Source: Thermoplasmata archaeon
GTDB lineage: Archaea; Thermoplasmatota; Thermoplasmata; Lutacidiplasmatales; UBA184
Assembly (NCBI GenBank): GCA_027315165.1
Contig: DAHUYN010000010.1
Location: forward strand, 25,021 to 89,020
Reading direction: 5' to 3'
DNA: 64,000 nucleotides
Under the pieces are notes generated by a model, which saw only the letters and a list, made by a program, of their open reading frames with translations, was not told the DNA's origin and did not search any database. Made by a program: the position numbers and the translations under genes. Positions 20,608 to 64,000 of the stretch are shown here, in pieces (position 1 is the stretch's first letter; each line of letters opens with the position of its first letter).

Positions 20608-20708
20608 TGCAGGCGCCGGGAGTCCCGCGCGAACGCGGGAGGCGTCCGCGATTCGAACCCGGGTGGTCAGCTTGGAAGGCTGACATCCTACCGCTAGATT
20701 ACACCTGC
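20608..20708 (-). tRNA. tRNA-Gly(UCC) interrupted by a 30-nt intron in the T-loop
   Basis: Minus strand GCAGGTG TA ATCTAGCGGTAGGAT G TCAGC CTTCCAA GCTGA CCAC CCGGG TTCGAA[intron]T CCCGG CGCCTGC A; acceptor and T-stem pair only when the intron is removed. Confidence 0.88.
20622..20651 (-). other. Predicted BHB intron (30 nt) of tRNA-Gly(UCC) at about 59/60
   Basis: Minus strand TCGCGGACGCCTCCCGCGTTCGCGCGGGAC: 8-bp stem CGCGGACG/CGTTCGCG, central helix UUCG/CGGG (two GU), 3-nt bulges AAU and ACU. Confidence 0.8.
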
Positions 20709-57130: not shown

Positions 57131-57233
57131 TAGCGGGGCATGGATTTGAACCATGGATCTACGGGTTATGAGCCCGTCGGGATTTCAGGGCGAGCGACCG
57201 CGTCGCCCGCTTTCCTGACTACCCTACCCCGCT
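57131..57233 (-). tRNA. Initiator tRNA-Met(CAU) interrupted by a 28-nt intron in the D-loop
   Basis: Minus strand AGCGGGG TA GGGTAGTCAGGAA[intron]ATCCC GACGGGCTCATAACCCGTAGAT CCATGGTTCAAATCCATG CCCCGCT A; A1-U72 pair and GGG/CCC anticodon-stem run of archaeal initiators. Confidence 0.92.
57184..57211 (-). other. Predicted BHB intron (28 nt) of initiator tRNA-Met in the D-loop
   Basis: Minus strand AGCGGGCGACGCGGTCGCTCGCCCTGAA: 8-bp stem GCGGGCGA/TCGCTCGC, central 4-bp helix CAGG/CCTG, two AAA bulges. Confidence 0.87.
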
Positions 57234-57255: not shown

Positions 57256-57264
57256 GGTATATGA
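57256..57264 (-). promoter_or_regulatory. TATA-like box for initiator tRNA gene
   Basis: Minus strand TCATATACC about 25 nt upstream of the tRNA 5' end. Confidence 0.5.
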
Positions 57265-63790: not shown

Positions 63791-64000
63791 GTGAGCAAGC
63801 GCCGATCGGTGCGGCCGGTCACCTTCACCGCCGAGGAATGGCGGACCCATTTGGAACTGGATGCCCAGCTCCGCGAACAGAATCGAATCCAGCGGCAGTT
63901 GATCGCGCGCCTCGAAGAGAACCTCGAACTCCTCCAGGGGCGGCTGCCGCCACCCCCGGACTGGGTCAAGCCCAACGTCCCCGAGCGCCCCGAGGAGGAG
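63791..64000 (+). CDS. N-terminal part of a second transposase-like protein (runs off window)
   Basis: GTG start; VSKRRSVRPVTFTAEEWRTHLELDAQLREQNRIQRQLIARLEENLELLQGRLPPPPDWVKPNVPERPEEE, resembles the N-terminus of IS66-type transposases. Confidence 0.6.
   Translation, partial: MSKRRSVRPVTFTAEEWRTHLELDAQLREQNRIQRQLIARLEENLELLQGRLPPPPDWVKPNVPERPEEE

What the first reader, a model, noticed from the sequence alone, without database searches (positions are those of the whole stretch)
57131..57233. Initiator tRNA-Met with a 28-nt bulge-helix-bulge intron in the D-loop
Seen directly: on the minus strand, ...GTCAGG-AAA-GCGGGCGA-CGCGG-TCGCTCGC-CCTG-AAA-TCCC... The exon CAGG pairs with intron CCTG (4-bp central helix), flanked by two 3-nt AAA bulges on opposite strands, and an 8-bp intron helix (one GU) closes a 5-nt loop. 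Cleaving between the second and third bulge nucleotides and ligating gives ...CAGGAA+ATCCC..., a normal archaeal initiator tRNA (AGCGGGG...CCCCGCT, A1-U72). The intron is not in the anticodon loop. Established knowledge: such non-canonical BHB introns are best known from Crenarchaeota/Thermoproteota. Inference: an essential single-copy-type tRNA here depends on a splicing endonuclease that accepts sites outside the anticodon loop.
Basis: partly seen in the sequence, partly recalled or inferred. Interest (0 to 1): 0.8.

Follow-up and report, generated by a model that had tools for sequence, protein, structure and literature searches.

The report
Intron inside the initiator tRNA D-loop
The only start-codon tRNA gene of this uncultured soil archaeon is interrupted by a 28-base intron outside the anticodon, which its cells must cut out to start protein synthesis; relatives carry the same intron, although the one intron-cutting enzyme found lacks the loop thought to be needed for such unusual sites.

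Summary
Window 57131-57233 (-) is an initiator tRNA-Met gene with a 28-nt intron at D-loop position 20/21 (57184-57211). Removing it gives a 75-nt initiator that ARAGORN recognises; the unspliced gene is missed. It is the only initiator-type gene found in the 94%-complete genome. The organism is a Thermoplasmata archaeon of the UBA184/Ca. Lutacidiplasmatales group, not Thermoproteota. All 33 initiator genes recovered from 32 genomes of the genus have the intron at the same site; its stem covaries (7 of 8 pairs changed on both sides; 0 of 500 shuffles reach this). Sister genera and families are intronless, with D-arms like the predicted spliced product. The motif is not fully strict: the 5' site is a clean 3-nt bulge, but the 3' site lies in an internal loop (relaxed HBh'/BHL-like). 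The gene is one of 17 interrupted among 40 tRNA genes (11 T-loop, 3 D-loop, 4 canonical introns). Only one splicing endonuclease gene was found, an alpha'2-type protein lacking the Crenarchaea/ARMAN-specific loop in all 111 orthologues checked. Published views conflict on whether such enzymes cut relaxed motifs. Real, conserved; a known kind of intron in a new lineage and enzyme context; splicing itself is inferred.

The parts
57258..57262 (-). TATA-like promoter box (ATATA) starting 29 nt upstream of the initiator tRNA
   Evidence: AT-rich pentamer starting at -28 to -30 in 33 of 33 initiator genes of the genus, at -29 in 28
57131..57233 (-). initiator tRNA-Met(CAU) gene, A1-U72, unspliced 103 nt
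   Evidence: single pattern match in the genome
57212..57233 (-). 5' exon, ends ...GUCAGGAA
   Evidence: intronless relatives continue with A/UCCC
57184..57211 (-). 28-nt intron at D-loop position 20/21
57214..57217 (-). central helix H, exon strand CAGG
   Evidence: pairs with 57186-57189; invariant in the 25 distinct 28-nt versions; compensatory UAGG/CCUA in G060 (L194)
57186..57189 (-). central helix H, intron strand CCUG
57211..57213 (-). 5' splice-site bulge AAA (3 nt, strict)
57183..57185 (-). 3' splice-site AAA, within an internal loop (relaxed)
57190..57210 (-). intron hairpin h' (8 bp, 5-nt loop; 9 bp in the fold)
   Evidence: 7 of 8 pairs changed on both sides across the genus
57131..57183 (-). 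3' exon with CAU anticodon loop and three G-C pairs in the anticodon stem

Best explanation
This is the cell's initiator tRNA gene, and its 28-nt intron is a real archaeal tRNA intron. The precursor folds so that D-loop exon CAGG pairs with CCUG at the intron end. The single alpha'2-type splicing endonuclease cuts in the two AAA stretches flanking that helix, and RtcB joins the exons to ...CAGGAAAUCCC.... The gene, fold, conservation and enzyme genes are shown; cleavage by this enzyme and joining are inferred. The intron most likely arose inside the UBA184 family, after the split from the intronless genera, and has been kept by vertical descent.
For: Sole initiator-type gene: one pattern match; the other two CAU tRNAs found are an elongator Met with a canonical intron and a probable Ile2. 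All 33 genes of the genus have the intron at the same site, 27-32 nt; 20 further congeners listed in the class survey do too. h' covaries, 0/500 shuffles. H is invariant in the 28-nt set and changes compensatorily in G060. Same-order relatives G037-G039 and same-family genera g24, g26, g27, g28 are intronless, with D-arms such as GTTAGGAAATCCC, GTCAGGTATCCC or GTCAGGTCATCCC. Excision gives a tRNA that ARAGORN recognises. One EndA gene with two domains, fold like A. fulgidus alpha'2 EndA, and one RtcB, 569.9 bits. Thirteen further noncanonical introns were found in the same genome; the T-loop ones follow a common exon-intron pairing rule.
Against: No RNA data. The genome is 94% complete, so a second copy cannot be wholly excluded, although the 100%-complete congener G029 also shows one initiator match, with the intron. 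The relaxed 3' site is, by part of the literature, not an efficient alpha'2 substrate (PMC6379350, PMC12397907).
Confidence: 0.93

Rival explanations
1. The gene is a decayed or unexpressed copy and an intact initiator exists elsewhere.
For: Assembly is 94% complete in 61 contigs.
Against: Single match in own and in most genus genomes; intron at an invariant site in 33 of 33 genes with perfect acceptor and T-stems and a conserved TATA-like box; the complete congener G029 shows one intron-bearing match.
Confidence: 0.03
2. The 28 nt is not spliced but kept as an expanded D-arm, giving an unusual initiator tRNA.
For: No transcript data; the hairpin is stable.
Against: The exon-intron pairing and bulge pattern (CAGG/CCUG, AAA on both sides) is what a splicing endonuclease reads, and 13 other noncanonical introns sit in the genome, 11 of them at T-loop 59/60 with a shared pairing rule; intronless relatives have a normal D-arm.
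Confidence: 0.03
3. The intron is spliced, but a different, unrecognised nuclease or an additional EndA subunit supplies the relaxed specificity.
For: Reviews call alpha'2 enzymes narrow (PMC6379350, PMC4033280); the genome is not complete.
Against: Only one gene with the EndA domain in own genome; 28 of 28 relatives at least 90% complete have matches, typically two domains in one reading frame; PMC8707768 states that homodimeric enzymes do cleave 3-nt bulge plus internal loop motifs.
Confidence: 0.12

Closest known systems
[quoted passage not shown]
   Same: Short BHB-type introns outside the anticodon loop; 20/21 and 59/60 are listed positions
   Different: Host is Thermoplasmata, not named among those lineages; EndA is alpha'2 without a specificity loop
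Disrupted initiator tRNA genes: Nanoarchaeum split iMet (37/38) and Thermofilum permuted iMet (59/60) (PMC3218864)
   Same: Essential initiator tRNA made only after endonuclease processing
   Different: Here a continuous gene with a cis D-loop intron, kept across a genus
Korarchaeum alpha2 EndA with noncanonical introns (PMC4033280)
   Same: alpha2 enzyme together with noncanonical introns
   Different: The Korarchaeum enzyme is said to share the specific loop of (alpha beta)2 enzymes; Lutacidiplasmatales EndA has no insertion there
Atabeyarchaeia and Freyarchaeia (Asgard) tRNA intron load (PMC11291895)
   Same: Many noncanonical tRNA introns in an uncultured archaeal lineage
   Different: 92-95% of tRNA genes interrupted there, about 42% here

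Membership tests
Archaeal BHB tRNA intron | Exon-intron helix of 4 bp | tested here: met
   CAGG/CCUG, invariant in 25 of 25 distinct sequences
Archaeal BHB tRNA intron | 3-nt bulge at the 5' splice site followed by an intron helix | tested here: met
   AAA then h'
Strict (hBHBh') BHB motif, a subclass | Strict 3-nt bulge at the 3' splice site with an outer exon helix directly adjacent | tested here: not met
   3' AAA sits in an internal loop; outer D-stem not contiguous. This places it with relaxed HBh'/BHL motifs, which the literature counts among BHB introns (PMC4090602, PMC6379350)
Archaeal BHB tRNA intron | Excision gives a normal tRNA | tested here: met
   ARAGORN tRNA-Met(cat), 75 nt; agrees with intronless relatives
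Archaeal BHB tRNA intron | Cut by EndA and ligated in vivo | not testable with these tools
   EndA and RtcB genes present
Archaeal initiator tRNA | A1-U72, CAU anticodon, three G-C pairs in the anticodon stem | tested here: met
alpha'2-type EndA | Two EndA repeats in one chain, catalytic Tyr/His/Lys in the second | tested here: met
   GFKYG, HAxYL and VRK-type motifs conserved; Foldseek TM 0.77/0.86 to 1r11. Dimer state not tested
Broad-specificity EndA with CSL or ASL | Loop insertion before the conserved LSLLE helix of the catalytic repeat | tested here: not met
   No insertion in 111 of 111 orthologues; insertion site located by the A. fulgidus-CSL chimera 3p1y

The most novel reading that the evidence does not exclude
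A loopless alpha'2 splicing endonuclease processes relaxed, noncanonical-position introns, including one in the only initiator tRNA, across a whole archaeal genus, so the CSL or ASL loop is not required for intron spread as the co-evolution model proposes.
Probability: 0.6. Interest if true: 0.65.

Novelty: new variant of a known kind. Interest (0 to 1): 0.52.

Why it matters
The spread of tRNA introns to unusual places is usually explained by endonucleases gaining a specificity loop. Here a lineage with a large noncanonical intron load, including its essential initiator tRNA, has a single found enzyme without that loop. That makes a disputed point, whether alpha'2 enzymes cut relaxed motifs, directly testable with one protein and one RNA. 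It also shows that simple tRNA finders truncate or miss many tRNAs in these genomes.

Tried and rejected
A search of viral contigs with a neighbouring ORF found no relative. A first BHB scan with strict 4-bp helices missed most T-loop introns because A57-type tRNAs form only 3 bp; it was replaced by closure of T-stem and acceptor stem. A first regex for the EndA loop found nothing and was replaced by tblastn-anchored columns. The idea of an intact second initiator copy was tested and not supported. Marck and Grosjean 2003 is not held, so prior reports of iMet introns in Crenarchaeota could not be checked in full; PMC4307357 says two of three A. pernix Met tRNAs are interrupted, without naming which.

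Full report
What is there. On the minus strand at 57131-57233 lies AGCGGGG-TA-GGGTAGTCAGGAA[agcgggcgacgcggtcgctcgccctgaa]ATCCC-GACGGGCTCATAACCCGTAGATC-CATGGTTCAAATCCATG-CCCCGCT-A. Removing the bracketed 28 nt gives a 75-nt tRNA with A1-U72, a CAU anticodon and three G-C pairs in the anticodon stem; ARAGORN calls it tRNA-Met only after removal. Rfam matches 57131-57204 only, reading intron as acceptor stem, and ARAGORN misses the gene in the window.

Where it is. EndA searches give Thermoplasmata MAGs of the UBA184 / Ca. Lutacidiplasmatales group as nearest named relatives, 70-73% identity. G000 is 2.04 Mb, 94% complete; the window is about 72% G+C. The paper naming the order (PMC9287336) does not use the word intron in its main text. 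I found no held paper reporting noncanonical tRNA introns in this lineage, but much subscription literature is not held.

Is it the only copy? The initiator pattern has one match in the genome. The Rfam hits contain two other CAU tRNAs: an elongator Met with a canonical intron (L020) and a probable Ile2 (L015). The 100%-complete congener G029 also shows one initiator, with the intron.

Conservation. Thirty-two genomes of the genus yielded 33 initiator genes, and all 33 carry the intron at the same junction, 27-32 nt long. In the 25 distinct 28-nt versions the central helix never varies, while 7 of 8 pairs of the intron stem show changes on both sides; 96.8% of cells pair against 92.0% in shuffles, and no shuffle of 500 reaches any measure. 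In the class survey 20 further congeners and two same-family genera (g25, g29) have the intron, whereas genera g24, g26, g27 and g28 of the same family lack it, with D-loops such as GTCAGGTCATCCC. Families f2 and f3 of the same order are intronless. The simplest reading is one gain inside the family; no tree was built to test it. G053 and G060, in other families, have longer introns at the same site, G060 with UAGG/CCUA in place of CAGG/CCUG; G052 has a T-loop intron in its initiator instead. A TATA-like box starts at -28 to -30 in all 33 genes of the genus, at -29 in 28.

The motif. The 5' splice site is a strict 3-nt bulge between a 4-bp helix and the intron stem. The 3' site is not: beyond AAA, U22 faces U16, and the D-stem starts only after a 4x4 (in the fold 3x3) internal loop. 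This is a relaxed HBh' or BHL-like motif.

Company. Own genome: 17 of 40 tRNA genes carry 18 introns, 4 at 37/38, 3 in the D-loop (iMet, Arg-GCG, Lys-TTT) and 11 in the T-loop at 59/60 (the Asn intron). In the T-loop set the T-stem is the outer helix, UUCR pairs with intron bases, and the two bulges are AAN and NNU; tRNAs with G57 mostly make 4 bp, those with A57 make 3 bp plus a mismatch (8 and 14 of 22 in two genomes). G029 has introns in largely the same tRNAs at the same positions with different sequences.

The enzyme. One EndA gene was found, with two domains in a single reading frame, as in the great majority of the relatives searched. An AlphaFold model (pLDDT 89.5) matches Methanopyrus and A. 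fulgidus EndA best. At the place where the Crenarchaea-specific loop was grafted into A. fulgidus EndA (3p1y), none of 111 orthologues has an insertion. RtcB is present.

Against the literature. Reviews state that alpha'2 enzymes are narrow and that only (alpha beta)2 and epsilon2 enzymes remove relaxed motifs efficiently (PMC6379350; PMC12397907), and that Korarchaeum is the only alpha2 archaeon with noncanonical introns (PMC4033280). PMC6379350 also notes that A. fulgidus EndA removes a BHL intron at 37/38 from full-length pre-tRNA. Another group states that homodimers do cleave a 3-nt bulge plus internal loop (PMC8707768), citing earlier work, and shows that the Ferroplasma enzyme (a euryarchaeal homodimer; Thermoplasmata by my own knowledge) cuts a minimal BHB at 30 C. 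The present case fits the second view but does not prove it, since no cleavage was measured.

Verdict. Real, conserved, almost certainly spliced, in a lineage not previously listed for such introns in the papers read. The intron is of a known kind; the initiator D-loop location with a loopless alpha'2 enzyme is the new part.

Noticed in passing
window 20609-20708 (-), intron 20622-20651: tRNA-Gly(UCC) has a 30-nt T-loop (59/60) intron; ARAGORN and Rfam both report a falsely truncated gene ending inside the intron.
   Followed up: yes
L041 (G000:C1:9900-10500) and L236 (G029): tRNA-Lys(UUU) carries two noncanonical introns, one in the D-loop and one in the T-loop, in two congeneric genomes.
   Followed up: partly
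L042 and L234: tRNA-Trp has a long intron (5' part 135 nt instead of about 48) with GATGACGA-like stretches that might be a box C/D guide RNA, as in other archaea.
   Followed up: no
L193 (G052): A class relative has an intron in the T-loop of its initiator tRNA instead of the D-loop.
   Followed up: partly
L153 (G059:C57): A partial repeat of the initiator D-arm (ATAGCCAGGAAATCCCC) lies a short way upstream of an intronless initiator gene.
   Followed up: no
window 63907-63997 (-): ARAGORN reports a tRNA with a 4-base anticodon (gacc) near the contig end; no Rfam match supports it, probably a false call.
   Followed up: partly
G031 C76 and C112: Two initiator genes with identical introns in one genome, possibly duplication or strain mixture.
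   Followed up: no
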